The notes under the pieces are model-generated. The model had not been told where the DNA came from and ran no database searches. It worked only from the letters and a program-made list of their open reading frames with translations. A stretch of DNA of 64,000 bases from Spirosoma montaniterrae. GTDB lineage: Bacteria > Bacteroidota > Bacteroidia > Cytophagales > Spirosomataceae. Shown here one piece after another: positions 12,560 through 24,445 of this stretch. Made by a program: the position numbers and the translations under genes. Each line of letters opens with the position of its first letter. Positions within the stretch are counted from its first letter, which is position 1. The stretch is from contig NZ_CP014263.1 of assembly GCF_001988955.1 (NCBI RefSeq), forward strand, positions 5,684,501-5,748,500. The letters are read 5' to 3'.

Positions 12560-12705
12560 ATAATCAATGATTTTGTTGGCGCAAATATCGGGACATTTCC
12601 GGGATAACGGGTAACATACCAAAATTGGAATCTATCGCCCGCTTACCTTTCACGCTTTCGCCCGATTAAGCTGCGGTAACTTGATAGACAAACGAGACCA
12701 CGTTC

Positions 12706-12732: not shown

Positions 12733-13320
12733 ATGTCGACGCGCCCCCTGCCCATTTATGCAACCGAACCCGATTTTTACGAGGCCCTGCGCCGACGCGA
12801 CGAGCGGGCGTACCAGTTTCTGTACGCCGATTGTTTCCCGATGTTCCGGCATTGGGTGCTGCAGAACAGCGGTTCTGAGATGGACGCTGAAGATGCGTTT
12901 CAGAAAGGCATGATGAATTTTTTGCTGAACATCGAAACCGGCAGCTATCAATATCAGTCCGGCACTCGCATCAGTACTGTGCTGTTTGGCTACAGCAAAT
13001 GCGTATGGCTGACCGAGTTGCAGTCGGCCCGGCTGCGAACCCGCGCCAGCCTGCCCGACGCCTTCGACCCGGCAGACGTGGCTTCGGTGGCGCAGGATCT
13101 GGAACGCATGGAAATTGTGGCAACGGTTCGGCAATCGTTACAGCAACTGAAAGATGAGTGCCGAAAATTGATGGAGTGGTTTTACGTCGATGAGTTATCG
13201 CTACGCGAGATTGCCGGGCGGTTGGGTATGAAAGAAACGTCGGTGAAATCGAAGCGGTATGAATGTGCCCGGAAGTTAAAAGAATTGTATCAGAAACTTG
13301 CTGATCGTCAGGGATTATGA
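12733..13320 (+). CDS. Sigma-70 family (ECF-like) RNA polymerase sigma factor
   Basis: A 195-residue alternative sigma factor. Region 2 contains the YQFLYADCFPMFRHWVLQNS and DAEDAFQKGMMNFL segments; region 4 is the helix-turn-helix LSLREIAGRLGMKETSVKSKRYECARKL. It is typical of Cytophagales sigma factors paired with TPR anti-sigma-like proteins rather than classical ECF with FecR. Its stop overlaps the next ATG (ATGA), so the pair is translationally coupled. The pair converges on the kinase/caspase island, making that island a possible target. Confidence 0.9.
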   Translation: MSTRPLPIYATEPDFYEALRRRDERAYQFLYADCFPMFRHWVLQNSGSEMDAEDAFQKGMMNFLLNIETGSYQYQSGTRISTVLFGYSKCVWLTELQSARLRTRASLPDAFDPADVASVAQDLERMEIVATVRQSLQQLKDECRKLMEWFYVDELSLREIAGRLGMKETSVKSKRYECARKLKELYQKLADRQGL

Positions 13321-14093
13321 ATTTTTCCGAAGAAGATTACGAACTTATTGAAGCGTATTTAGCCAATGAACTGTCGGCAACAGACCGGGCCGCGTTCGAG
13401 GCCGATATGCAGCGCAACCCCGATCTGCAAGCTGAGGTAAGCCTGCAACGCAATCTGCGGTTAGGCTTGCGGGCCATTGGCATCGAAAAGGCCGTGATGC
13501 AGGCACGTAGTCAGTACGAGGCTATAAAGCCAGCGGCTGCGTCGGTTCGCCCGCTGGTTTCGTCGCGGTCATGGTTCTATTGGGCCGTGGCTGCGTCGAT
13601 AGTTGCCGTGCTTACAATTGGCTACGTTGCTTATCAACAAACTACGCGCCCGCCCGATCTGGCATTTATCGACACCATAGCCCCAAATCAGAGCGACGAC
13701 CTGGCGAAAGAACTACCTGTTGGAGCCGTTTCGTCCAACGTCCGGACGCAGTTTTTAGATGCGTTTACTCAGTACAAAGCCGGACGCTACGACCGGGCTA
13801 TCGAGCAGTTGAGAACAGTACCCGCCGACAAACAGTCGGAACCTTATAAACTGTATTTTCTGGGTTTGAGCCGATTAGCCAATAAGCAGCCTGCCAGGGC
13901 TATTCCGCTGTTCAAACGGGCCATGAATTCGCCTGAATCGTCCATCCGCCAGAAATCGGAGTGGTTTCTGGCGTTGGCCTACGTGAAAAATGGGCAAAAC
14001 GAAAGAGCGTTGCCATTGCTTAAAAAGGTCAGCAACAACAACGCTCATCCGTTCCGGCAACTTGCGCAGGAAGTACTCCGAAAAATCGACTGA
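13317..14093 (+). CDS. Membrane TPR protein, probable anti-sigma partner
   Basis: 258 residues. The N-terminal cytoplasmic part (EEDYELIEAYLANELSATD, RNPDLQAEVSLQRNLRLGL) resembles the zinc-free anti-sigma-like region of Bacteroidota regulators. One transmembrane helix lies at about residues 87-105 (FYWAVAASIVAVLTIGYVAY). The C-terminal, predicted periplasmic part has two or three TPR-like hairpins (QYKAGRYDRAIEQL, NKQPARAIPLFKRAM, NGQNERALPLLKKV). A plausible role is to hold the upstream sigma factor at the membrane until a periplasmic signal arrives; this is inference from gene pairing. It ends one base short of the convergent LamG lipoprotein gene. Confidence 0.8.
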   Translation: MNFSEEDYELIEAYLANELSATDRAAFEADMQRNPDLQAEVSLQRNLRLGLRAIGIEKAVMQARSQYEAIKPAAASVRPLVSSRSWFYWAVAASIVAVLTIGYVAYQQTTRPPDLAFIDTIAPNQSDDLAKELPVGAVSSNVRTQFLDAFTQYKAGRYDRAIEQLRTVPADKQSEPYKLYFLGLSRLANKQPARAIPLFKRAMNSPESSIRQKSEWFLALAYVKNGQNERALPLLKKVSNNNAHPFRQLAQEVLRKID

Positions 14094-14094
14094 G

Positions 14095-15744
14095 CTATTG
14101 CTCAGATAATGTTTTCACTTCGCTTTCTGTCAACGCCCGGCGGTAGATGCGGATGTCGTCCATGGCACCGTTGAAATACCACGGAATAATCCGATTCTGT
14201 GCGCCAAATTTCAGTTCACCACCGGGGCAGTTGTCAATTGAGCTGGCGGGCAGGTTTGTGTTCGATGAGAACTCGGTGCCGTTGATATACATGCGGGCGG
14301 TGCGCCCGGTATAGGTTAGTACAATGTGATACCAGGTATTGAGCGGGATGTTGCTGGCAAGCGACAGGCTCTGCCAACCCACGCCCCCCGCGCAGTTGCT
14401 GTTTTGTTTGATGTCAGTGTTTATGGCAATACCCGGTCCGTTGTCGTTGGGCCGTATCTGCGAACTGTACATTTCGGCTCCGCCATCGCTAAACCTTGAC
14501 TTGTTGAAAATCTGCATTCGGTCAGCCGAAGCACCCGGTCTGACCCAAATGCTGATCGAAAGCGCGTCGGGGCGTAGCGTTATGTTGTCGTTCATAAAAA
14601 AATAATTGCTCCCATTCAGCAGAATAGCCGAATTGGCCCGGCCCTTGTGGTCGGTTGTGAAGGTCGGGTTTCCAACCAGTATAATATGGTTGTCGAAACC
14701 GCTCACGTCGAGCCGCGAACCATCGGTAAACGGTATTGACGCGATTAAATCCTGAGCTACAGCGTCGAGCTGGGTGGTAAACTGGTTGATGTTTCCATAA
14801 ACTATTCCGCCATTGGGCACGCGCGCAAAGGGTCGGTAATAATAGCGCGTATTGGGCTGAAGACCCGTCAGGTTAACGGGGACGCTTACGTTGATAGCCG
14901 GATTGTCGATGTTAACGGTTGGCGAGTTGCTAACATCGGGGGTGCTGTTGGTGGGCGAGTAGCAGATGCCGTAGCTGGTGGCTGCGGGGTTGCCGGGGCT
15001 GTTGATGATAAAATTGACCGTAGCCGTCGTTACAGCAGCATTGGGCACGCCCACGGCGGCAACAGACGGGTTGATGTATGTTAGAAAGTCGACCGTTGAG
15101 CTATAACCTGCACGTCCGGTTGCGTTCACGGCAAAACTCCGCACATAGTACCGGGTGTTGGGCAAAAGGTTCGTCAGCGAAAACGAAACGGGCGTATTGA
15201 TGGCTACTGTGCCGTTTATATTCTGCGTAGCGTCCTTGTCATATTCCGGGTTTTGGTTGCTGCTGGAGTAGCAGATGCCGTACCGCGTCAGGTTGGCGTT
15301 ACCCGTCGACGTAACGGCCATCCGCACGGTGGCCGACGTAGGCGACAACTCAGTTACGGGCTGAACCGTTACGGCAGGCGTGGTTGCATTGCTGACCGTG
15401 ACCGTGCGCGACAACTCGGTTTCAAGGCCACATGAATTGGTCAGAACTACTTTTACGACATACTCGCCCGGAGCCGGATACGTGTACCGGGTTGTCAGAC
15501 CGGTGGTAGTTGTGGGATTGCCATTACCGAAATTCCAGATGACCTGATCGATGGTTCCGGCGTTGCTGCCAATTGAAAAATCGACCTGAAGTTGTTGAAT
15601 CTGCGCGTTGATAAGACCGCCGGGCTTCACGCACTCACGCTGCGTTTTTTTGCCGGGTAGTTCCCAGTTTTCGCACCCGGTCAGGCTATAGCCGCACAGA
15701 CAGGCAAATGCGATGAGAAACAAAGAAGTTGCTAATGACCTCAT
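14095..15744 (-). CDS. PKD-Fn3-LamG lipoprotein
   Basis: 549 residues. The signal peptide ends in lipobox YSLTGC (Cys24), so it is probably lipid-anchored. Domains in order: PKD (about 50-115, with VIWNFGNGNP and YTYPAPGEYVVKVVLTNSC), two fibronectin-III-like repeats (about 118-215 and 220-325, both with LxPNTRYYxRxFA), then a LamG/concanavalin-fold domain (about 335-549, ending with the GAMDDIRIYRRALTESEV signature). An adhesive or glycan-binding surface protein, last gene of the kinase/caspase operon. Such proteins are common in Cytophagales, so its membership in the signalling system is only contextual. Confidence 0.85.
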   Translation of the reverse strand: MRSLATSLFLIAFACLCGYSLTGCENWELPGKKTQRECVKPGGLINAQIQQLQVDFSIGSNAGTIDQVIWNFGNGNPTTTTGLTTRYTYPAPGEYVVKVVLTNSCGLETELSRTVTVSNATTPAVTVQPVTELSPTSATVRMAVTSTGNANLTRYGICYSSSNQNPEYDKDATQNINGTVAINTPVSFSLTNLLPNTRYYVRSFAVNATGRAGYSSTVDFLTYINPSVAAVGVPNAAVTTATVNFIINSPGNPAATSYGICYSPTNSTPDVSNSPTVNIDNPAINVSVPVNLTGLQPNTRYYYRPFARVPNGGIVYGNINQFTTQLDAVAQDLIASIPFTDGSRLDVSGFDNHIILVGNPTFTTDHKGRANSAILLNGSNYFFMNDNITLRPDALSISIWVRPGASADRMQIFNKSRFSDGGAEMYSSQIRPNDNGPGIAINTDIKQNSNCAGGVGWQSLSLASNIPLNTWYHIVLTYTGRTARMYINGTEFSSNTNLPASSIDNCPGGELKFGAQNRIIPWYFNGAMDDIRIYRRALTESEVKTLSEQ

Positions 15745-15781
15745 GGTTAAGAAGAATTAGGTTGAGCGGTGAATAGACGAA

Positions 15782-16714
15782 TTAAAAAGAGTAGCGCACG
15801 GCCACACCCCAGCTATGCGACGAGGGGTTGACTTGCAGGGCCGTTTCGCGCACTTTCGGCTTACGGATCAGCAAATAGGTTTCGAGCAAAACTGCCGTTG
15901 CGGCTATACCCAGACAGGCTTTGTACAGACCGTTTTTCCGTTGAGCTACTTCGGCGTCTGCGTAGGCACTGGCGTACTGTCTGTACGCGTCGGGCGTATT
16001 AATGATGCCGTCATTGTCGGGGTCAACGGTTCTGCCAACCTCATTGAGTTTATTCAGCTTAGCCTGATAATCAGTTCGTAACACCATTGCATACGCCCCG
16101 GCACCTATAGCCACAGCCCCCGTCAGCAATTTCAAGCCGATGCGTTTGGAGGGTCGGGCCACCTCGGTATCTGTGATGACTTTCGAGATTGTATTTTCCT
16201 CGCTATTCCGAATCTGGAGTTCCAGCGTACTGCGCTTGGTGGGGTTAGTAGCGTATCGTAGCGCGTTTTCGTATTGACCTTTCGCTTCAGGGAACCATTT
16301 GTCTCCATAGAGCCGGTTCGCTTTTTGCTCGTAATAATCGACCAGCGTGGCTTTTGTGATACCATCGTCGGCGTTCAGGCTCAGAAGCTGATTGAAGAGC
16401 GGCATAGCGGATTTTTCATCGCCCTTTTGTAAGGTGCTATCGGCCTTTTGCCGTAGGTTCAGCGCGTTCGTACACCGCTCGATCTGGCCTTTGGCGTAGG
16501 CGTCGTTCTCAAACGTGGGTACTTCCAGGCAGTTTCGGTACTGCTTCACGGCTTCGGCGTAGTTGCCGACCCGGAATAGGTCGTCGCCTTTCTTTTTGTA
16601 CCGATCATATTCATCATCGATATGGGCAGCAACGAGCGGCAGCGCATTGGCGGGCCGGGCCTGAACCGAGAGTGAAGCAAAAAAGAAGAAAAGAAAAAGT
16701 AAGGGTTTCATCAT
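15782..16714 (-). CDS. Exported TPR protein with C-terminal membrane segments
   Basis: 310 residues. A signal peptide lies at about 1-19 (LLFLFFFFASLSVQA). TPR-like hairpins follow (DDLFRVGNYAEAVKQYRNCL, KGDEKSAMPLFNQLLSL, DKWFPEAKGQYENAL). Hydrophobic stretches lie at about 194-212 and 265-283. Between them is DPDNDGIINTPDAY, a calcium-binding thrombospondin-3-like turn. The chain ends in WGVAVRYSF, an outer-membrane-like terminal strand. It follows the kinase gene by 26 bp; the TPRs resemble those of the kinase's periplasmic part, suggesting a shared ligand or mutual binding. Confidence 0.75.
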   Translation of the reverse strand: MMKPLLFLFFFFASLSVQARPANALPLVAAHIDDEYDRYKKKGDDLFRVGNYAEAVKQYRNCLEVPTFENDAYAKGQIERCTNALNLRQKADSTLQKGDEKSAMPLFNQLLSLNADDGITKATLVDYYEQKANRLYGDKWFPEAKGQYENALRYATNPTKRSTLELQIRNSEENTISKVITDTEVARPSKRIGLKLLTGAVAIGAGAYAMVLRTDYQAKLNKLNEVGRTVDPDNDGIINTPDAYRQYASAYADAEVAQRKNGLYKACLGIAATAVLLETYLLIRKPKVRETALQVNPSSHSWGVAVRYSF

Positions 16715-16740
16715 GGGGAAATGGTAGAAAATGTAACGCG

Positions 16741-18705
16741 TTACTGGTTATTACACTGTTTGATGCGCATCCGAACTTCCGGCGTATCGCGCAGAGCCTG
16801 CGCCACTTTATACCAGTCTTTCGCACCGTCGAACTCGTCGTTGGCAAAAATCTTGTTTGCTTTGCTCAGGTAGCGGCCATACGCGCCCTCGGCTTTGCTG
16901 GTGTTCAATTTATGTTCGCTGGCTAAGGCAGCCGCCCGACTGAAATCGGTAATGGCTTTGGCTTTGTTGTTGCCATTATCGATGGCTTTCACGCCCGCTT
17001 CGATCAATTGGTCGTATTCGGCCTGTTGTCTTTGCGATTTTTCGGCTACGGCGGCATCTTCCGTTGTTTTCACTGGCGCAGGCTCCGACGGTATAGGCGT
17101 GGGCACAACCGCAGCCGTTTGGGGCGATCCGATGGGTGAACCGGCGGGTTTTTGATTGAGAGCCAGATTGTGCAGTTGCCGAACGTCGCGCCGGGTCGGG
17201 TCGAGTTGGAGTGCGCTGGCCGTAAGTTCAACTGCTCTGACAAAATCGCCCTGACGAAACGCGTTTCGGGCTTTCGCCAACGCTACGTCGATGCGTTTTG
17301 TCAGCGCGGCTTTGTTGTCGGTAGTGCCGTTTCCTTCAACCGGCGGAACAGGGTCTTTTGTACCACTAATAGTTGGAGAAACTGATCCCGTACTAATCGC
17401 CGTTGAGTCGGTTTTTGTACCGGTTGAACTCGTTGTCTGCTGACCGTTCAGTACCGCGTAGACCAATATACCACCCGCAGCCAAAGCGGCTAAAATGAAT
17501 GTGCTTTGTTGCGTTCGTTTTTTGGGCGTCGGTATGCGTACCGGTACCGGTTTGGCAATCGGCGTTTCGACTGGGGTCGGTTCCGGGGAGGCAGCATACA
17601 CGTCTGTGGCTTCTTCGCAGACGGGCGGTTTTTCATATACGTCGGTTGCCTCGGCAGGTGGGGCCATTACCGGAGCCGGGCGTGGTCGCAACGTTGCCAA
17701 ACACGTTGCCAGCCCCTGTATAGCCTCGGGCTGTGTAGGCGAACCGCGCAGAATCTCCTCATACAGCAAAACAGCCTCATCGTATTGCCCGTTTGCCATG
17801 TGCTGTCGGGCTTCGGTCAGTCGTTGCGGAATGGCATCCAGCAGATCGAGCAGTTCGTCTTCCTTGCGAACCCGCTCGTGAATATCGCGCACCAAACACC
17901 GCCGGATCATGGTTCGGTACGGCTCCTGAATGGTATCAACGCGGGCGGGCAATTCAACAGTCACAATCTTCTTTTCAATCTCGCGCCGAATCGACTGCTC
18001 GCTGCTGTTCCGCAAATCGGCCCGAAATGGCTTTTCGCCCGCCAGCATTTCGTACAGAATCACGCCAAAAGCCCACAAGTCGAGGTTGAAGCTGACCCGG
18101 CTGCCTTCGATTTGTTCGGGAGCTTTATACGAAGGCGTTCCCCGACCATCGCTCAGGTCAAAATCCGAACTGTCGAGTTCGTCGTCGTTCACCAATTTGC
18201 TGAGACCGAAATCGGCGATTTTAGGGATAAAGCGTCCGGCGTTATCGCGTGAAATCAGGATGTTGGCCGGTTTGAAATCACGGTGAACGATGCGATGGCG
18301 GTGCAGGTGTTGCAGACCGAGCAGAATGCCCCGCGTGATGTCGTGAATCTGCGGGGGAGTTAGCGGCTGCTTTTTGAGCAGATCGGCCAGATTGCCATCG
18401 GGGTAATACTTCATGATGGCAAAATCGCAAAGGCTGGTATCGGTTTCGAGCCGGTAGCAGGCGTCGTAGCGGGCAATGTTGCCTTGCCGGGGTACACGCT
18501 GCGCCAGTTCGACTTCGGCCTTTAGCGACTTGGTATCATTTCCTTTAAACTCACTGATTTTAATGGCGACCCACTCCGTTTCTAACTGATCTTCAACCCT
18601 GATAACCCGACCATATGAGCCACTACCAAGCAACATCTCCGCATCGTTGGGCCGGATGGGGTAGCGTTGTTTGAATTGGTGAAAAGAAGTAAACGGCTGA
18701 CTCAT
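16741..18705 (-). CDS. Transmembrane Ser/Thr protein kinase with TPR ectodomain
   Basis: 654 residues. The cytoplasmic kinase domain is complete: Gly loop GSGSYG (27-32), Lys49 in VAIKI, HRDFKPAN (Asp143), DFG (165-167) and GTPSYKAPE (189-197). A TPR-like hairpin lies at 302-320. The juxtamembrane linker carries the motif EATDVY twice (352-357 and 365-370, with Thr354 and Thr367). A single transmembrane helix follows at about 402-420. The outer part is Thr/Ser rich and then TPR-like (about 465-520 and 575-654). With PP2C and two FHA proteins alongside, a phosphothreonine relay is expected. Autophosphorylation at the two linker threonines is inference. Confidence 0.92.
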   Translation of the reverse strand: MSQPFTSFHQFKQRYPIRPNDAEMLLGSGSYGRVIRVEDQLETEWVAIKISEFKGNDTKSLKAEVELAQRVPRQGNIARYDACYRLETDTSLCDFAIMKYYPDGNLADLLKKQPLTPPQIHDITRGILLGLQHLHRHRIVHRDFKPANILISRDNAGRFIPKIADFGLSKLVNDDELDSSDFDLSDGRGTPSYKAPEQIEGSRVSFNLDLWAFGVILYEMLAGEKPFRADLRNSSEQSIRREIEKKIVTVELPARVDTIQEPYRTMIRRCLVRDIHERVRKEDELLDLLDAIPQRLTEARQHMANGQYDEAVLLYEEILRGSPTQPEAIQGLATCLATLRPRPAPVMAPPAEATDVYEKPPVCEEATDVYAASPEPTPVETPIAKPVPVRIPTPKKRTQQSTFILAALAAGGILVYAVLNGQQTTSSTGTKTDSTAISTGSVSPTISGTKDPVPPVEGNGTTDNKAALTKRIDVALAKARNAFRQGDFVRAVELTASALQLDPTRRDVRQLHNLALNQKPAGSPIGSPQTAAVVPTPIPSEPAPVKTTEDAAVAEKSQRQQAEYDQLIEAGVKAIDNGNNKAKAITDFSRAAALASEHKLNTSKAEGAYGRYLSKANKIFANDEFDGAKDWYKVAQALRDTPEVRMRIKQCNNQ

Positions 18706-18737
18706 AGCGTGGCTTTAGAGCGTAACACAATGTAACT

Positions 18738-19544
18738 TCAAATATACGTTAAAGGTAGATTATCTGGAAAGCGACCATAAAAAATTGGCGTTTGTTTACC
18801 ATTTGTTGCCTGTTTAACCCGCTGACTCACGTACTGGTGAAGTTCGCGGATGGTAACAATTCGGTCGGCGTTCCGGTCGGCCCGGCCCGACAAGCCCCGC
18901 AGGAGGTAATGCGTAAAGGTGCCGCCCGCCAACTGCCGGCTTTCGATGGCAACCTGCGTGGAGCGGCTGGCGAGCAGCAGGGCAATAGCACCGGATTCGT
19001 CGGCGTGCGGAGCTGCCGACTGCCCGAATGTCGAAGCTACGGCGGTTGGGTTGGTCATACCACCCGACAGGCAGGCGTCGGCAATGCACAGTTTTGTACT
19101 GGCCTTCGATGCGCGAAAAGCGGCTTTGATGGTTTGATGCGAAAGCCGTTTCAAATCATTTACCGAACGGGCATCGGCGGGCGCAAAACTATCGGCGGTG
19201 CCGTGGCCGGAGAAGTACAGCATGATGCGGTCGGTTGGTTTCGCTTTCCGAAACAGCAACATAGCCTGGCCGATGGCCGAAGCCGTAGCCTGCCGGTTGG
19301 TGAGCACCCGCATGTTTGACGCAGGCACCCGCCCACCCAACGGGCTTTGCAGAAAGGCCGCTACCTGCCGGGCATCGCGGTCGGCAAAGCGCAGATCGCC
19401 TGTTCGGTAGGAGAACGCTTCGTAGTCTGAAATACCAATGACCACAGCGTAAGTAGCTGGCTGCGCCGACGTGCCCGAAGTACTGAGCAGCAGACTGATA
19501 ACGCAGTTGAACAGGATAGAAAAAACAGCACTGTCAGGTTGCAT
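18738..19544 (-). CDS. Exported caspase-like peptidase (C14 family)
   Basis: 268 residues from the ATG at 19542-19544; the frame runs further upstream, but that part is antisense-like Cys/Arg-rich sequence inside the phosphatase gene. A signal peptide lies at about 1-27 (FSILFNCVISLLLSTSGTSA). The caspase p20 fold follows: YAVVIGISDY, then catalytic His114 in YFSGHG and Cys158 in LCIADACLSGG. The p10-like tail has GGTFTHYLLRGL. Both catalytic residues are intact. A leader is uncommon for a caspase relative and puts the peptidase in the periplasm. It overlaps the PP2C gene by 11 bp. Confidence 0.88.
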   Translation of the reverse strand: MQPDSAVFSILFNCVISLLLSTSGTSAQPATYAVVIGISDYEAFSYRTGDLRFADRDARQVAAFLQSPLGGRVPASNMRVLTNRQATASAIGQAMLLFRKAKPTDRIMLYFSGHGTADSFAPADARSVNDLKRLSHQTIKAAFRASKASTKLCIADACLSGGMTNPTAVASTFGQSAAPHADESGAIALLLASRSTQVAIESRQLAGGTFTHYLLRGLSGRADRNADRIVTIRELHQYVSQRVKQATNGKQTPIFYGRFPDNLPLTYI

Positions 19545-20352
19545 GGCAGGTGTAGGGTAGGGGTGTCGGATATGTCTCTGGGTACGCAACGTACTCGATA
19601 CCAAACAGATAGCCTGAATAATTGTCCTGCACCTGCCCCTCGCACAGGGCCAACAGCGATTGTAGCTTGGCCTGATTGGGAATGGTATGCACAAACAGGG
19701 CTTCGATCAGTTCATCGTGCAGTTGCTCCAGCACGCCATCGGTGCAGAGGAAAAAATAATCACCCGCCCGCACGTCGGTCAGCAGCGTTATATCGGGAGT
19801 GGCCCGCGCTGACACGTCGACCTCGCCCGCTGTGGCAACCACGGCCCGGCTGAGCCGATTGCGCCACGGGTGTGTCAGGGCCTGCGTGGCTGTAATGATG
19901 CCGGCTTCGACCATGTCGTTAACCTGCTTATGGTCGCGGGTTTGAAAAATAATCCGCCCGTCGCGAATCTGATACACCCGGCTGTCGCCAATGTGCGCCA
20001 CGGTTATGCCCCGTTCGTGAACCTGTACCAGAGCCAGTGTCGAACCCATTCGGTTTACGAGCGGGTGCTGTAGTAAGTACTGCCGATAAGCCTCATACGC
20101 CTGACTCAGGGCTGTTTGCAGGTGTACGCTGTCGAGCGTGGGAAAGTCGAACAGTTGCGCATAGGCTACTATGTGCTGGCACAGAAGCTGGCTGGCAACC
20201 TCGCCTTTGTCGGCTCCGCCCATACCATCGCAGACCAGAAAAAGCTGGTTCTCCGGCTGCGCTTCCCCCACGGGCGGATACAGGGCGTCCTGATTGTTGT
20301 TTCGCTGACCTACCTGGGAGAAGGCAAGAGGTAAGGTTAGGTGAATGCGCAT
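19534..20352 (-). CDS. PP2C-family protein phosphatase
   Basis: 272 residues; metal-dependent Ser/Thr phosphatase, cytoplasmic. Motifs in order: NNNQDALYP (1), LVCDGMGGADKGE (2, metal Asp42), GSTLALVQV, HIGDSRVYQIRDG, FFLCTDGVLEQL and DNYSGYLFG (last motif, with the metal Asp). It is the expected counterpart of the kinase. Three bases separate it from the upstream FHA gene stop, and it overlaps the downstream caspase start, so these three genes are tightly coupled. Confidence 0.94.
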   Translation of the reverse strand: MRIHLTLPLAFSQVGQRNNNQDALYPPVGEAQPENQLFLVCDGMGGADKGEVASQLLCQHIVAYAQLFDFPTLDSVHLQTALSQAYEAYRQYLLQHPLVNRMGSTLALVQVHERGITVAHIGDSRVYQIRDGRIIFQTRDHKQVNDMVEAGIITATQALTHPWRNRLSRAVVATAGEVDVSARATPDITLLTDVRAGDYFFLCTDGVLEQLHDELIEALFVHTIPNQAKLQSLLALCEGQVQDNYSGYLFGIEYVAYPETYPTPLPYTCHAT

Positions 20353-20355
20353 AAT

Positions 20356-20967
20356 TTACTGAGTGCGGTCGGGGTTAAAAGCCAGATCAACTTTGTAAGT
20401 TTCGAGCATAACCGGGTTGATTGGCTGGTGACTCAGGCGAAAACGGTCGGCCCCGCCCAGCGTGATAAGACCCTGATGGTCAACGTCGATGATGTCGGTT
20501 TTCTGGAGAGGTACGTTGTTGAGCGATGTACCGTTCAGGCTATGTCGAATGGCTTGCGTATCGGGGTCGGCGGCTCCGTCCTGAAGCTGATAGCGCAGTT
20601 GTCCGGTCCATTTATCGAAACTCACGGTCAGCGTACAGTGCTGCCGACTGATAAAGCACCGTCCGTTGTGCAGGTAGCGGTCTACCCGAATGTTGGCCGT
20701 ATCGCCCGTACCGATGACGTTTGGGCCATATCGCAGCGGATACAACGTTCTGGGCTGGCCGAGGTAGGTCAGGCAACCGAAGCCGGGCAGGCCATGTACA
20801 ATACTTTCGTCGTAATGAAACGCTGATTGCAGCATGTTGGTAGCTCCGCAGCCAACGTGCGAACAGACGATATAGCCGCGTTCGGCGTCGGTGCCCCGAA
20901 CCATGATGCGCCGGCCACATTGCTGGCAGGAAATGAGCGATGTTTTGAAACCTGGCATACTACTCAC
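20356..20967 (-). CDS. FHA-domain protein with N-terminal zinc ribbon
   Basis: 203 residues. Four cysteines (Cys14, Cys17, Cys35, Cys40) form a probable zinc ribbon. The FHA domain spans about 75-185: GPNVIGTGDTANIRVD, then FISRQHCTL and SLNGTSLNNVPL, the Ser-x-x-His and Asn-Gly features that read phosphothreonine. No membrane segment. Its ATG overlaps the stop of the upstream 310-residue gene (ATGA). Likely an adaptor that docks on phosphorylated kinase or substrate. Confidence 0.87.
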   Translation of the reverse strand: MSSMPGFKTSLISCQQCGRRIMVRGTDAERGYIVCSHVGCGATNMLQSAFHYDESIVHGLPGFGCLTYLGQPRTLYPLRYGPNVIGTGDTANIRVDRYLHNGRCFISRQHCTLTVSFDKWTGQLRYQLQDGAADPDTQAIRHSLNGTSLNNVPLQKTDIIDVDHQGLITLGGADRFRLSHQPINPVMLETYKVDLAFNPDRTQ

Positions 20968-21896
20968 GATTCCATGTCCTGCACGTTGCCGTTGTTAACA
21001 TAGGTGTCGTCTGACATCGAATCGACTTCAGGCGCGTAGGTTTCGGCGTCCATCTCGTCGGCGGTTGTCTGCATCAGCGTCGCGTCTGTGGGCGGTACGG
21101 GTTGGTCGTCAACGGCGTCGGTATCAACAATCGAATCAACCACCTCGCGCGACATAGCGTGTTCGAGGTGCTGACCGAAATCGTCGTTGGACAATACGGT
21201 GGGCGTGATTCGTTGAATCATGACCAACTCACCGTCAATTGCATCGTACTTATAAACTGTGTCTAAACCCTGATCGCCCGTTTCGTCAACTACCCGATAC
21301 GTGTGACCGTCTTCGCCATCGAGTACGAGCGTATCAATTACACCGTCGTTATCGTCGTCAATACCTATTACCCGCCGACCGTTCACGTAGCCTTCAATGA
21401 CGGTAGGTTTGGTCTGTTCCGCCAATTCGATTCGCGAACCTGTCTGGCTTTTGGCAGAGTGGTAGGGCTTAAACGGAAGTTCTTCCTGCGTAACCATTTC
21501 CGTAAACTCAACCCGCTGTTCGAGCGACAGATCGGTCCATTCGTCTTTCAGGAATGTGTTGTACCAGCGGCCATGCCAGTTAAATACGCCCCCTACGCCT
21601 ACTTCATTCCGGGCCGCTTCGAAAGCCTCATCGAACGACATGGCGTCGGTAGTTTTGCCAGCCACGTCGATATCGGCGGGTAATGCACCAACAGGTGTTG
21701 TGGGCGTGGCTAAGTCCATGCCGGGCTGACCTTCAGGTGATGAGCCTGACTTAGGAATTTTTGAGGCAACGGCCCAGGCGGCTCCACCGAGCAGGAGGGT
21801 AGCCGCCGAGATGCCCAGCATTTTTTTCTGATCGGCAGAGAGGCCATTTGTCGTAGACATGGTTGAGCGGTTTGGCGTAAACGTATCGGTTTGCAT
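20964..21896 (-). CDS. Membrane-anchored acidic protein of the kinase island
   Basis: 310 residues; an internal ATG at 21860 is an equally possible start. One transmembrane helix lies at about 28-46 (LGISAATLLLGGAAWAVAS). The central segment SFDEAFEAARNEVGVGGVFN, running into WHGRWYNTFLKDEW, is a motif I recall in other Bacteroidota proteins without a named function. The C-terminal half is very acidic, with DDDNDGVIDTLVLDGEDG resembling a calcium-binding turn and a Thr/Asp-rich tail (about 240-310). No catalytic family recognised. Given the FHA neighbours, its Thr-rich tail is a candidate kinase substrate; that is inference. Confidence 0.7.
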   Translation of the reverse strand: MQTDTFTPNRSTMSTTNGLSADQKKMLGISAATLLLGGAAWAVASKIPKSGSSPEGQPGMDLATPTTPVGALPADIDVAGKTTDAMSFDEAFEAARNEVGVGGVFNWHGRWYNTFLKDEWTDLSLEQRVEFTEMVTQEELPFKPYHSAKSQTGSRIELAEQTKPTVIEGYVNGRRVIGIDDDNDGVIDTLVLDGEDGHTYRVVDETGDQGLDTVYKYDAIDGELVMIQRITPTVLSNDDFGQHLEHAMSREVVDSIVDTDAVDDQPVPPTDATLMQTTADEMDAETYAPEVDSMSDDTYVNNGNVQDMES

Positions 21897-22007
21897 AAAT
21901 TGAAAAATGAGAAGGTTGAAACAGGGTGTGGATAGTTTTCTTTTTCGTGTGGATCATTCCTTTATCGGGCGAGTTTGAAAAAGGTAAGTGATCGACGCGA
22001 AAAAAAT

Positions 22008-22790
22008 TTAGCTTACCCAAATGGCCTGGCATCGGCGGCAGCTTTTTTGCTGAGCCAGGAGGTCCCATTCGCGGGTGCCGAACGGATCGCGGCAGGTAGG
22101 GTTGGGGCAGCGGTAGCGTTCGCGATATTGTTTGTCGATTAATTCTAACTTCTCTTCGGTCGACAGCAGCGTCGAGCACAACGTAGGTACGAGCATACTT
22201 AGCCCGGCTCCCGACATAATCTGTAGAATCGGTATCGACCCGCCCCCTGTGGCTATGGCCGCGCTCACGCCCACGATAGACGACACAATCACGCTGCCCG
22301 TGCGGATCATCTTTTCACGGTTGCGGCAGTCGCGCCGAAGTTTCGGATATTGCTCGTAAACTGTCTGTAAATCAGAAAACTGGCGCGAAAAGTCGAGCGA
22401 ATCAGCGGCTTCTGGTGCTGGTTTGGATGCAGTAGGCTGCGGCAGAACGGGCTGCTCTGGCGTATTGGCGGGTGGCACAACCCGGAGGGCGAGCAACTGA
22501 TTAGTAGTATAATCGACGTCGGCCAGGCGGATAGTGTCGCCGTCTGTAATCAGTTTACGCTTGATGCGCTGCTGATTCACAAACGTGCCATTTTTGCTGT
22601 CGAGGTCTTCGAGTACGAAATCGGTGGGTGTACACTGAATCAGCGACGCGTGTTTGCTGCTGATTTTCGGGTTGGCTACCACGATGTCGTTATCGGCACC
22701 GCGCCCGATGGTAAACACCGGCAGTTGGCTCAACTGCTCAAGCTGCTGTTCAAACCAAATAGCCGGTTTTGTTAACGTTGAGAAGGTCAT
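22008..22790 (-). CDS. FHA-domain protein with membrane hairpin and C-terminal zinc ribbon
   Basis: 260 residues. The FHA domain lies at about 25-105: TIGRGADNDIVVANPKISSK, HASLIQ, then DLDSKNGTFVNQQRI. A Pro-rich linker follows (about 108-128). Two hydrophobic helices lie at about 165-205 (VIVSSIVGVSAAIATGGG and ILQIMSGAGLSMLVPTLCS). A C-terminal zinc ribbon is formed by the Cys pairs in RCPNPTCRDP and SCRRCQAIW. It is the first gene of the minus-strand island; about 110 bp separates it from the next gene. It probably tethers phosphothreonine recognition to the membrane near the kinase. Confidence 0.88.
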   Translation of the reverse strand: MTFSTLTKPAIWFEQQLEQLSQLPVFTIGRGADNDIVVANPKISSKHASLIQCTPTDFVLEDLDSKNGTFVNQQRIKRKLITDGDTIRLADVDYTTNQLLALRVVPPANTPEQPVLPQPTASKPAPEAADSLDFSRQFSDLQTVYEQYPKLRRDCRNREKMIRTGSVIVSSIVGVSAAIATGGGSIPILQIMSGAGLSMLVPTLCSTLLSTEEKLELIDKQYRERYRCPNPTCRDPFGTREWDLLAQQKSCRRCQAIWVS

Positions 22791-23696: not shown

Positions 23697-24044
23697 TCAG
23701 GCGACTGCGTATCCTGTGTAGGGACGTTTGTATGGAGCGTGAAATGCCAGCACAATATCATCTTTACTGACTCCCCTACGTTCGAGTTCACCAACAATAT
23801 CAAAATCGGTAGCATCCTCCTGCACCCAGATTTTGCCGTTTTTAATATCGAGGTGGAAGACCGGGTAATACACACGTTTACCGTTTTCCCAGCCAATGGT
23901 CAGAATCTGGTAATGGTCGCGCTCGGCGTCTATAATGAGTTGTTCTTCAACTTGATCGTCACCTATGAAAATAGCAGGTGCATTGGCATACTGCGTCAGC
24001 AATTCGGTAATTAACGTTCGATATGTATTTACCTTGCTATCCAT
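23697..24044 (-). CDS. xisI: XisI family protein
   Basis: 115 residues. YRTLITELLTQYANAP, then DHYQILTIGWENGKRVYYPV, FHLDIKNGKIWVQ, and FAPYKR-like LAFHAPYKRPYTGYAVA match XisI, a protein first described with the cyanobacterial fdxN excision element. It overlaps xisH by 16 bp. The pair is abundant in cyanobacteria and patchy elsewhere, which suggests transfer. Its real role is unsettled; a toxin-antitoxin-like or defence role has been considered. Confidence 0.9.
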   Translation of the reverse strand: MDSKVNTYRTLITELLTQYANAPAIFIGDDQVEEQLIIDAERDHYQILTIGWENGKRVYYPVFHLDIKNGKIWVQEDATDFDIVGELERRGVSKDDIVLAFHAPYKRPYTGYAVA

Positions 24045-24445
24045 TGTACAATTCGCTTAGAGTTAGCATCAAAAACTAACAGTGAAATGCTATAATCAGC
24101 AACGATCTTTTGAATCAAAGGTTTCTGGAAGAATGAGGTATATATATCTGTATCGACGGCCAGAAAAAGTTTTCGAGATGGTCTATCCTCTTGAAGGCCA
24201 ATTAAATAAACATCATATTGACCTTTGGCTTGATAAAAATCGCTGAGTTTCGACTTACTCAAAAAGCTTTTTACTTCAACCGCAATATGTTCAGAACCTC
24301 GTTCAGCCGCCAGAACCTGTTCGGCTGCCAAATCTATTTCGAGTCGCAAACCACCGAGTTTTAAAATCAGCGGGTCATGAGTAATTAGCCATCCATCGGC
24401 TTCAAGGGCTTCACGAACTACTTGATGAAATATGTCACGCGCCAT
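24029..24445 (-). CDS. xisH: XisH family protein, restriction-endonuclease-like fold
   Basis: 138 residues. MARDIFHQVVREALEADGW and ITHDPL are the family opening. The LEIDLAAEQVLAAER segment followed by HIAVEVKSF gives the Asp...Glu-x-Lys pattern of a PD-(D/E)XK nuclease fold. It is paired with xisI, which begins within its last codons. All apparent active-site acids are present. Whether it cuts DNA is not established. Confidence 0.9.
   Translation of the reverse strand: MARDIFHQVVREALEADGWLITHDPLILKLGGLRLEIDLAAEQVLAAERGSEHIAVEVKSFLSKSKLSDFYQAKGQYDVYLIGLQEDRPSRKLFLAVDTDIYTSFFQKPLIQKIVADYSISLLVFDANSKRIVQWIAR

What the first reader, a model, noticed from the sequence alone, without database searches (positions are those of the whole stretch)
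14095..22790. Eight-gene kinase/phosphatase/FHA/exported-caspase island
Seen: consecutive minus-strand genes FHA+membrane hairpin+zinc ribbon, membrane acidic protein, zinc ribbon+FHA, PP2C, caspase-like peptidase with signal peptide, transmembrane Ser/Thr kinase with TPR ectodomain, exported TPR protein and LamG lipoprotein, with overlaps of 4 and 11 bp. Known: FHA reads phosphothreonine, PP2C reverses kinases, caspase relatives appear in bacterial programmed-death and defence systems. Inference: a trans-envelope phospho-signalling device that controls a periplasmic protease, possibly for cell death, envelope stress or anti-phage response. I do not know this exact combination from a described system.
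Basis: partly seen in the sequence, partly recalled or inferred. Interest (0 to 1): 0.82.

Follow-up and report, generated by a model that had tools for sequence, protein, structure and literature searches.

The report
Caspase-kinase sigma-factor island, possible CRISPR switch
A conserved block of ten bacterial genes (kinase, phosphatase, phosphate-reading proteins, an exported caspase-like protease and a gene-switching sigma factor) shares a rare promoter signature with CRISPR immunity operons elsewhere in these genomes, so it may be an envelope alarm that arms bacterial immunity.

Summary
Observation confirmed: eight consecutive minus-strand genes, overlaps of 4 and 11 bp. [quoted passage not shown] Order is kept in 19 of 22 Spirosoma relatives; a diverged type-2 island carries the same core; in Runella PP2C and caspase are one protein. 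Key result: CTTACCTTT-N11-CCKATWMA lies upstream of sigma and of the membrane-acidic gene (start of the main operon), with only these two exact matches in the 5.8 Mb genome, and recurs at both places (<=3 mismatches) in five other genera. With a matrix from island sites, 16 of 33 Cas1 loci of 36 Spirosoma genomes score high (shuffled matrices: mean 0.10, maximum 2), 12 directly before cas6 or a cas8-position gene, this genome's type I operon included. Best reading: a trans-envelope phospho-signalling/caspase module wired to an autoregulated ECF sigma whose regulon includes CRISPR-Cas and surface lipoproteins. Caspase cleavage of the anti-sigma is inference. Against: G006, G018 and G020 keep sites but lack this sigma. 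'Anti-phage' gains indirect support; 'cell death' none.

The parts
12642..12669 (+). ECF-type promoter signature upstream of the sigma gene (exact match; 91 nt from motif start to ATG)
12733..13320 (+). ECF sigma factor (TIGR02937; DAED motif present)
13317..14093 (+). anti-sigma-like protein: N-terminal domain, one membrane segment, periplasmic TPR domain (topology inferred)
14090..14105 (.). terminator-like hairpin between the two convergent operons (the scan as a whole found no more than shuffles do)
14095..15744 (-). lipoprotein with PKD, fn3 and LamG domains
15782..16714 (-). exported protein with weak TPR repeats
16741..18705 (-). transmembrane Ser/Thr kinase with catalytic residues intact
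18738..19544 (-). caspase-fold peptidase (C14) with hydrophobic leader; His114 and Cys158 invariant
19534..20352 (-). PP2C phosphatase, metal-binding Asp residues intact; fused to the caspase in Runella aurantiaca
20356..20967 (-). zinc ribbon + FHA protein; invariant C-terminal Thr202
20964..21896 (-). membrane-anchored acidic protein with DxDxDG repeats; no Pfam family
21961..21988 (-). same promoter signature upstream of the acidic gene (exact match; 92 nt from motif start to ATG)
22008..22790 (-). FHA + membrane hairpin + zinc ribbon protein; no signature upstream (0 of 21 loci at <=3 mismatches)

Best explanation
The ten genes are one trans-envelope signalling island. A membrane Ser/Thr kinase, a PP2C phosphatase, two FHA proteins and a membrane acidic protein form a phospho-switch at the inner membrane. 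An exported or membrane-anchored caspase and the periplasmic TPR ectodomain of the anti-sigma sit on the other side. On a signal, the anti-sigma is inactivated (most likely by proteolysis in which the caspase takes part) and frees the ECF sigma. The sigma transcribes itself and its anti-sigma, the operon from the acidic protein to LamG (caspase and kinase included, so positive feedback), and a genome-specific regulon that repeatedly includes type I CRISPR-Cas operons and RHS-repeat surface lipoproteins. Shown: gene content, conserved order, catalytic residues, shared promoter signature. Inferred: that this sigma reads the signature, that the caspase cuts the anti-sigma, that kinase/FHA/PP2C gate the caspase, and what the signal is.
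For: Conserved order with changed flanks: all eight genes in order in 19 of 22 type-1 congeners (two others cut by contig ends, one without a LamG hit); sigma/anti-sigma adjacent in 18 of 22. All-or-none: 10 of 10 Spirosoma genomes without a type-1 or type-2 caspase also lack a full-length FHA-hairpin gene (one of them is 71% complete). PP2C and caspase are one 523-aa protein in Runella aurantiaca, the caspase leader lying between the domains. Signature upstream of the acidic gene in 20 of 21 loci (<=3 mismatches) and of sigma in 16 of 18, of none of the other eight genes at that cut; present at both places in five other genera. Exact pattern in 36 genomes: 22 matches against 2 for the reversed pattern, all in island-bearing genomes. 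CRISPR: 16 of 33 Cas1 loci score >=19 against a mean of 0.10 for 300 column-shuffled matrices (maximum 2); 12 are directly before cas6 (10, all Pfam Cas6) or a cas8-position gene (2). Footprint in seven cas6 loci: blocks 87% and 74% identical, rest 33-46%. The two island sites of a genome resemble each other more than sites of different genomes (23 genomes: 14.48 v 13.54 +/- 0.22 of 17, 0 of 20000 permutations). The earlier pattern search at <=1 mismatch had already met three CRISPR operons.
Against: G006 and G018 keep the island and sites but have no close sigma orthologue; G020 has no type-1 island yet a good cas6 site. By loci the link with sigma is modest: 11 of 21 v 1 of 11, Fisher p=0.023, and related loci are not independent. 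Ten of those 21 CRISPR loci lack a usable site. This genome's cas8-position site is absent directly before the orthologues in G024, G026 and G035. Type-2 islands lack the signature. The co-variation of the two sites rests largely on four diverged genomes: without them and two near-duplicates 408 of 20000 permutations reach it. Several CRISPR loci have a regulator-like gene just upstream that could control them. No caspase substrate is known.
Confidence: 0.6

Rival explanations
1. The signature is read by another regulator or another ECF sigma factor, which controls both the island and CRISPR-Cas; the adjacent sigma is only one of its targets.
For: Sites persist in three genomes without a close sigma orthologue; more distant sigma homologues are common in the genus; a regulator-like ORF of 294-315 aa (HTH/WYL type by eye, no family search) is the nearest upstream same-strand ORF in L343, L344, L346, L348, L349 and L356.
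Against: One of the two most constant sites is the sigma gene's own promoter, as expected of an autoregulated ECF sigma; the two sites of a genome co-vary; exact sites occur only in island-bearing genomes of the 36 Spirosoma.
Confidence: 0.2
2. The caspase is an effector, not an activator: sigma induces it, and the phospho-switch unleashes it in the periplasm as an executioner or anti-phage protease.
For: The caspase lies in the operon behind the signature (gaps <=37 bp from the acidic gene to LamG), has an intact dyad and leader, and is fused to PP2C in Runella.
Against: No partner pore, toxin or substrate gene was recognised among the ten genes; sigma/anti-sigma linkage in most type-1 and several type-2 islands fits a signalling role as well.
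Confidence: 0.3
3. A general envelope-homeostasis ECF module; CRISPR operons picked up the promoter a few times and immunity is not its main task.
For: Much of the non-island regulon is exported or surface protein: RHS-repeat lipoproteins in G034 (3), G011 (2) and G652 (Pfam), a similar one without a Pfam hit in G035, and large secreted proteins.
Against: CRISPR sites stand before at least three operon kinds (two cas6 kinds, cas8-position first) and in other genera (G628, G257).
Confidence: 0.35
4. Independent genes kept together by chance or shared transcription only, with no joint function.
For: Outside the family caspase or sigma may be missing from the core.
Against: Order kept across divergent genomes with changed flanks, all-or-none presence, and a PP2C-caspase fusion.
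Confidence: 0.03

Closest known systems
Type III-E CRISPR-associated caspase system (Cas7-11/Csx29, Csx30, CASP-sigma; PMC10028731, passages seen)
   Same: Caspase-clan protease, sigma inhibitor and ECF sigma; predicted sigma sites at cas1.
   Different: There the protease is RNA-guided, CHAT-type and encoded in the CRISPR locus; here it has an export leader, is C14-type, comes with kinase/PP2C/FHA, and lies away from the CRISPR locus.
Caspase/EACC conflict systems (eLife 2020 PMC7159879 and 2021 PMC8195603, passages seen)
   Same: Caspases; some neighbourhoods hold an ECF sigma and a TPR protein; kinase/PP2C/vWA linkage occurs in a GTPase-centred subset.
   Different: No EACC, vWA, MoxR, STAND or GTPase domain was reported for the ten genes here; the caspase is a stand-alone protein with a leader.
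Ser/Thr-kinase-linked ECF sigma factors such as ECF43 (PMC8999054, passages seen)
   Same: Kinase gene near the ECF gene.
   Different: ECF43 lacks the DAED motif and an anti-sigma; this sigma has DAED and an anti-sigma-like neighbour.
RseA/DegS-type anti-sigma proteolysis (as described in PMC10028731)
   Same: Membrane anti-sigma with an outside domain that a periplasmic protease could cut.
   Different: No DegS-like protease among the ten genes; the candidate protease is a caspase.
PvdS control of Pseudomonas type I-F CRISPR (seen only as cited in PMC10028731)
   Same: ECF sigma raising cas expression.
   Different: No phospho/caspase module is mentioned there.

Membership tests
ECF sigma/anti-sigma system | ECF sigma domain pair | tested here: met
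   TIGR02937 57.5 bits against cut-off 42.9; Sigma70_r4_2 34.2 against 25.7
ECF sigma/anti-sigma system | adjacent membrane anti-sigma | tested here: inconclusive
   Gene overlaps sigma by 4 bp and has a membrane segment, but the NCBIfam antisigma hit is 34.6 bits, under its cut-off of 100
ECF sigma/anti-sigma system | autoregulated promoter | tested here: met
   Conserved signature 91-107 nt (motif start) before the sigma ATG in 16 of 18 loci; comparative evidence only
ECF sigma/anti-sigma system | signal-dependent loss of the anti-sigma | not testable with these tools
   needs experiment
ECF43 (kinase-activated ECF) | no DAED motif, no anti-sigma | tested here: not met
   Sequence reads MDAEDAF and an anti-sigma-like gene follows
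Bacterial C14 caspase (orthocaspase) | caspase fold with His-Cys dyad | tested here: met
   PF00656; model pLDDT 88.9 matches 3bij, MALT1 and legumain; His114/Cys158 in 32 of 32
Bacterial C14 caspase (orthocaspase) | proteolytic activity after basic residues | not testable with these tools
   needs enzyme assay
Type III-E caspase system | Cas7-11, Csx29, Csx30 in one locus | tested here: not met
   No such family among the ten genes
EACC1 caspase systems | EACC1 domain and matching caspase subfamily | tested here: not met
   NF047832 90.2 bits, under cut-off 140; no EACC domain reported
T6SS PpkA/PppA/Fha pathway | neighbouring T6SS genes | tested here: not met
   None among the ten genes; the wider genome was not searched
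Known defence systems (PADLOC) | a complete system model | tested here: not met
   Only kinase, caspase and PP2C models and two weak sigma hits

The most novel reading that the evidence does not exclude
A dedicated surface alarm for adaptive immunity: damage or phage contact at the envelope is read by a trans-envelope kinase/FHA/PP2C switch, an exported bacterial caspase cuts the TPR ectodomain of an anti-sigma, and the freed ECF sigma switches on CRISPR-Cas together with new surface lipoproteins. It would be a caspase-driven link from the cell surface to CRISPR immunity in Spirosoma and relatives.
Probability: 0.3. Interest if true: 0.92.

Novelty: new variant of a known kind. Interest (0 to 1): 0.77.

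Why it matters
What exported bacterial caspases do, and when CRISPR-Cas is switched on in Bacteroidota, are both largely open (my own assessment). A promoter signature shared by a caspase/kinase/sigma island and by several unlinked kinds of type I CRISPR operon makes both testable with a reporter assay and one deletion strain. If confirmed, it separates sensing (envelope) from memory (CRISPR) and gives a bacterial caspase a signalling role other than cell death.

Tried and rejected
Rejected: defence-island membership by PADLOC (only generic hits). The CRISPR link as a conserved property of this genome's cas operon: the site is absent directly before the orthologues of its first gene in G024, G026 and G035, so the link rests on many operons, not on this one; that first gene (593 aa) matches no Pfam or NCBIfam family and is called cas8-position by its place only. 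Dropped before the count of 12: three Cas1 loci scoring >=19 (L350, L351, L354) because the match lies inside an ORF; L359 because the next ORF was not shown to be a cas gene; the second L339 hit at 816 because no ORF follows. Kept: L343, although a longer reading of its cas6 ORF would cover the site. At <=2 mismatches the pattern in this genome is no better than its reversed control (5 v 5), so only exact or 1-mismatch matches and the matrix were used. At <=1 mismatch in 36 genomes: 62 matches v 26 reversed; several non-island matches lie inside ORFs. In the family search (200 genomes, 55 matches v 11 reversed) the pattern had been loosened to YTYACC after the cas sites were seen, so it is not an independent test; of its 17 matches outside Spirosoma, 16 were looked at: 4 lie inside a long same-strand ORF and 2 opposite an ORF. 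The matrix background could not be measured on a whole genome; it was measured on 832 kb of fetched loci and on 352 kb of them outside type-1 islands, partly other genera (0 hits). The site-resemblance test left out L045, L050, L150 and L152; one search repeats it with all 23. A first reading that L130 lacks the caspase was wrong: it is fused to PP2C there. Nothing useful: PDB fold match for the acidic protein (no E<=1e-3); A1 as a collection query. Saprospiraceae caspases mostly lack the core and were left out. Novelty searches: (titles and abstract starts seen); none of their listings names this gene set or an ECF sigma for Spirosoma CRISPR; most subscription papers and bioRxiv preprints are outside that library.
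Full report
1. What is there. Families by Pfam and NCBIfam: FHA + hairpin + zinc ribbon (hairpin and ribbon from the sequence); a membrane acidic protein with no family; zinc ribbon + FHA; PP2C; caspase-fold C14 peptidase; Ser/Thr kinase with TPR; an exported protein with weak TPR; a PKD/fn3/LamG lipoprotein. From the acidic gene to LamG no gap exceeds 37 bp, so this is probably one operon; the FHA-hairpin gene is set off by 111 bp. On the other strand, directly after LamG, lie an ECF sigma (12733-13320) and an anti-sigma-like membrane protein with TPR outside (13317-14093), convergent with the operon, with a terminator-like hairpin between them (14090-14105; that scan as a whole found no more hairpins than its shuffles). 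PADLOC gives only generic matches.

2. One unit. Of 35 other Spirosoma genomes, 22 hold a type-1 caspase orthologue (54-62% identity), 3 only a diverged type-2 form (40-46%) and 10 neither. Mapping 20-kb stretches: 19 of the 22 type-1 loci hold all eight genes in the same order; two are cut by contig ends; in one (L054) LamG gave no tblastn hit. Sigma and anti-sigma adjoin in 18 of 22; absent in G006 and G018, cut in two. Window neighbours KdsA, KdsB, CarB, the DegT-like gene, XisH and XisI gave no hit in those stretches, so the block keeps together while its surroundings change. All 10 genomes with neither caspase also lack a full-length FHA-hairpin gene (G033 is only 71% complete). Among named genomes the block, with sigma/anti-sigma, is in Fibrisoma, Larkinella, Rhabdobacter, Runella and Persicitalea. 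In Runella aurantiaca PP2C and caspase are one 523-aa protein, PP2C at 16-230, caspase at 291-513, with the former leader (moderately hydrophobic, 19-residue maximum 1.18) between them (one genome, so a sequencing fault is not excluded). The type-2 island (L055-L063) carries FHA-hairpin, acidic, zinc-FHA, PP2C and caspase genes with kinases near by, sigma in 5 of 9 loci and the anti-sigma in 3; its PP2Cs carry a hydrophobic segment near residue 330. In 20 loci from other genera and families, one of another order, FHA-hairpin/acidic/zinc-FHA/PP2C/kinase sets recur, with a caspase in 10 of 20 (L137 and L143 are short contigs). Bacteroidales loci L187, L190 and L202 hold rearranged sets and L182 a partial one, by profile matches.

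3. Parts in working order. Kinase Lys49, Asp143, Asp165; PP2C Asp22, 42, 205, 243; caspase His114 and Cys158 are conserved in 32 of 32 aligned proteins, except one gap each for Lys49 and Asp22 in L054. The caspase model is confident (pLDDT 88.9); nearest solved folds are GSU0716 (3bij), MALT1 and legumain. The FHA-hairpin protein keeps Arg/Lys30 and His47 in all 30 rows and its four zinc cysteines in 29; Asn67 is kept in type 1 (21 of 22) but not in type 2 (1 of 8). The zinc-FHA protein has lost the usual GR arginine in type 1 (0 of 23) but has it in type 2 (7 of 7), and carries an invariant C-terminal Thr202 (30 of 30), a candidate phosphosite (the meaning of these FHA residues is recalled knowledge). 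The acidic protein has DxDxDG repeats and, in the window, a membrane segment; its model is confident only in its middle part (mean pLDDT 68.0), and no solved structure matches at E<=1e-3.

4. The promoter. Upstream regions of 21 type-1 loci showed two blocks at fixed spacing, CTTACCTTT-N11-CCKATWMA. Scored systematically: before the acidic gene in 20 of 21 loci at <=3 mismatches (14 at <=2), before sigma in 16 of 18 at <=2, before none of the other eight genes at <=3. In the whole window genome only two exact matches exist, these two. In 36 Spirosoma genomes there are 22 exact matches against 2 for the reversed pattern; all 11 genomes with matches carry the type-1 island, and 17 of the 22 are the island's own sites. 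The pair is found, at <=3 mismatches, in Fibrisoma and Larkinella and, with a changed second block, in Rhabdobacter, Runella and Persicitalea. Within a genome the two sites resemble each other more than across genomes (23 genomes: 14.48 against 13.54 +/- 0.22 of 17 positions, 0 of 20000 permutations; without four diverged genomes and two near-duplicates 14.18 against 13.71 +/- 0.21, 408 of 20000).

5. The regulon and CRISPR-Cas. Of the five exact non-island matches, four precede lipoproteins (lipobox by eye; RHS repeat by Pfam in three) and one a methyltransferase. With one mismatch allowed (62 matches against 26 reversed) two more RHS lipoproteins appeared (G011) and three CRISPR-Cas operons: in this genome, 95 nt before the ATG of a 593-aa gene in the cas8 position, followed by cas7, cas5, cas3, cas6, cas1, cas2, cas4 and an array of 57 repeat copies (the 593-aa gene itself matches no family), and before cas6 in G023 and G030. 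To test this without picking, all 33 Cas1 loci of the 36 genomes were fetched and scanned with a matrix from 49 island sites. Sixteen loci score >=19; 300 column-shuffled matrices give a mean of 0.10 loci and at most 2; 352 kb of other loci give no hit. In twelve of the 33 the site is directly before the cas gene that leads the run: cas6 at +33 (L331, L338, L339), cas6 of another kind at +53 to +56 (L343-L349, seven loci), Cas8 of TM1802 type at +83 (L356), the 593-aa gene at +95 (L235). All ten cas6 genes pass Pfam's cut-off. In the seven-locus cas6 group the two blocks are 87% and 74% identical while upstream, spacer and leader are 33-46% (ungapped). In other genera the site precedes Pfam-confirmed cas6 in G628 (the same island sites as Fibrisoma limi L150) and G257, and an RHS lipoprotein in G652.

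6. Against. G020 has no type-1 island and no close sigma, yet a good cas6 site; G006 and G018 keep the operon site but lack sigma; G012, an 80% complete draft, shows none either. Ten of 21 CRISPR loci in sigma-bearing genomes have no usable site (a 3.4-kb contig, L335, left out); overall 11 of 21 against 1 of 11 without sigma, Fisher p=0.023, with related loci not independent and some contigs too short to show the operon start. The site of this genome's cas operon is not shared by its orthologues. In six of the twelve loci the nearest upstream same-strand ORF looks like an HTH/WYL regulator (by eye), a possible alternative control. Many CRISPR operons of the genus are evidently under other control.

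7. How it most likely works. Kinase and PP2C set the phosphorylation of partners, read by FHA domains at the membrane; this is coupled to the outside, where caspase and anti-sigma ectodomain meet; proteolysis frees sigma; sigma amplifies the island and turns on surface proteins and CRISPR-Cas. The Runella fusion would tie PP2C inside to caspase outside, if the segment between them spans the membrane. The sigma has a DAED motif, so direct phospho-activation in the ECF43 manner is unlikely (sequence; motif meaning from PMC8999054). The anti-sigma stalk carries a largely conserved K-x-[FL]-P motif in type 1, where a basic-specific protease could cut; this is a guess.

8. Known relatives. The nearest working analogue is type III-E (PMC10028731, passages): a CHAT protease cleaves an inhibitor of an ECF sigma with predicted sites at cas1; the same paper cites PvdS raising cas1. 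Caspase/ECF/TPR neighbourhoods are mentioned in PMC8195603 (passages), CHAT next to ECF54 in PMC8999054 (passages); passages of PMC3501461 and PMC7159879 were also seen. None of the passages or listings seen describes a kinase/PP2C/FHA/caspase island with sigma or its promoter link to CRISPR-Cas.

Noticed in passing
window 23697-24445 (-): XisI/XisH pair (Pfam PF08869, PF08814) just beyond KdsB, next to the island; no hit near the island in relatives.
   Followed up: partly
L130:6807-8378 and L159:9182-10753 (Runella aurantiaca): PP2C and caspase fused in one 523-aa frame, with the caspase leader between the domains.
   Followed up: partly
L235 (this genome, outside the window): Type I CRISPR-Cas operon with 57 repeat copies; the region before its first gene has a sigma-like site absent in relatives; that 593-aa gene matches no family.
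   Followed up: yes
L036, L037, L038, L039, L042, L044, L045, L049, L050, L150: A second, divergent copy of the promoter signature next to the sigma gene, facing variable neighbours (methyltransferase, BNR-like protein, small secreted protein, repeat adhesin).
   Followed up: partly
L343, L344, L346, L348, L349, L356: A regulator-like ORF of 294-315 aa (HTH/WYL by eye) is the nearest upstream same-strand ORF, 7 to 582 nt before the CRISPR promoter site.
   Followed up: no
L389 (G017): The signature stands 97 nt before a TerB-family gene.
   Followed up: no
L054 / L157 (Spirosoma telluris): Type-1 kinase and TPR genes are split over frames, suggesting a decaying or misassembled copy.
   Followed up: no
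L158, L159, L160: In Rhabdobacter, Runella and Persicitalea an extra PKD/LamG-like gene sits between the caspase and the kinase.
   Followed up: no
L061 (G029): A type-2 island has a transposase-like gene (by eye) some 1.2 kb upstream of its sigma gene and two acidic-protein genes in tandem.
   Followed up: no
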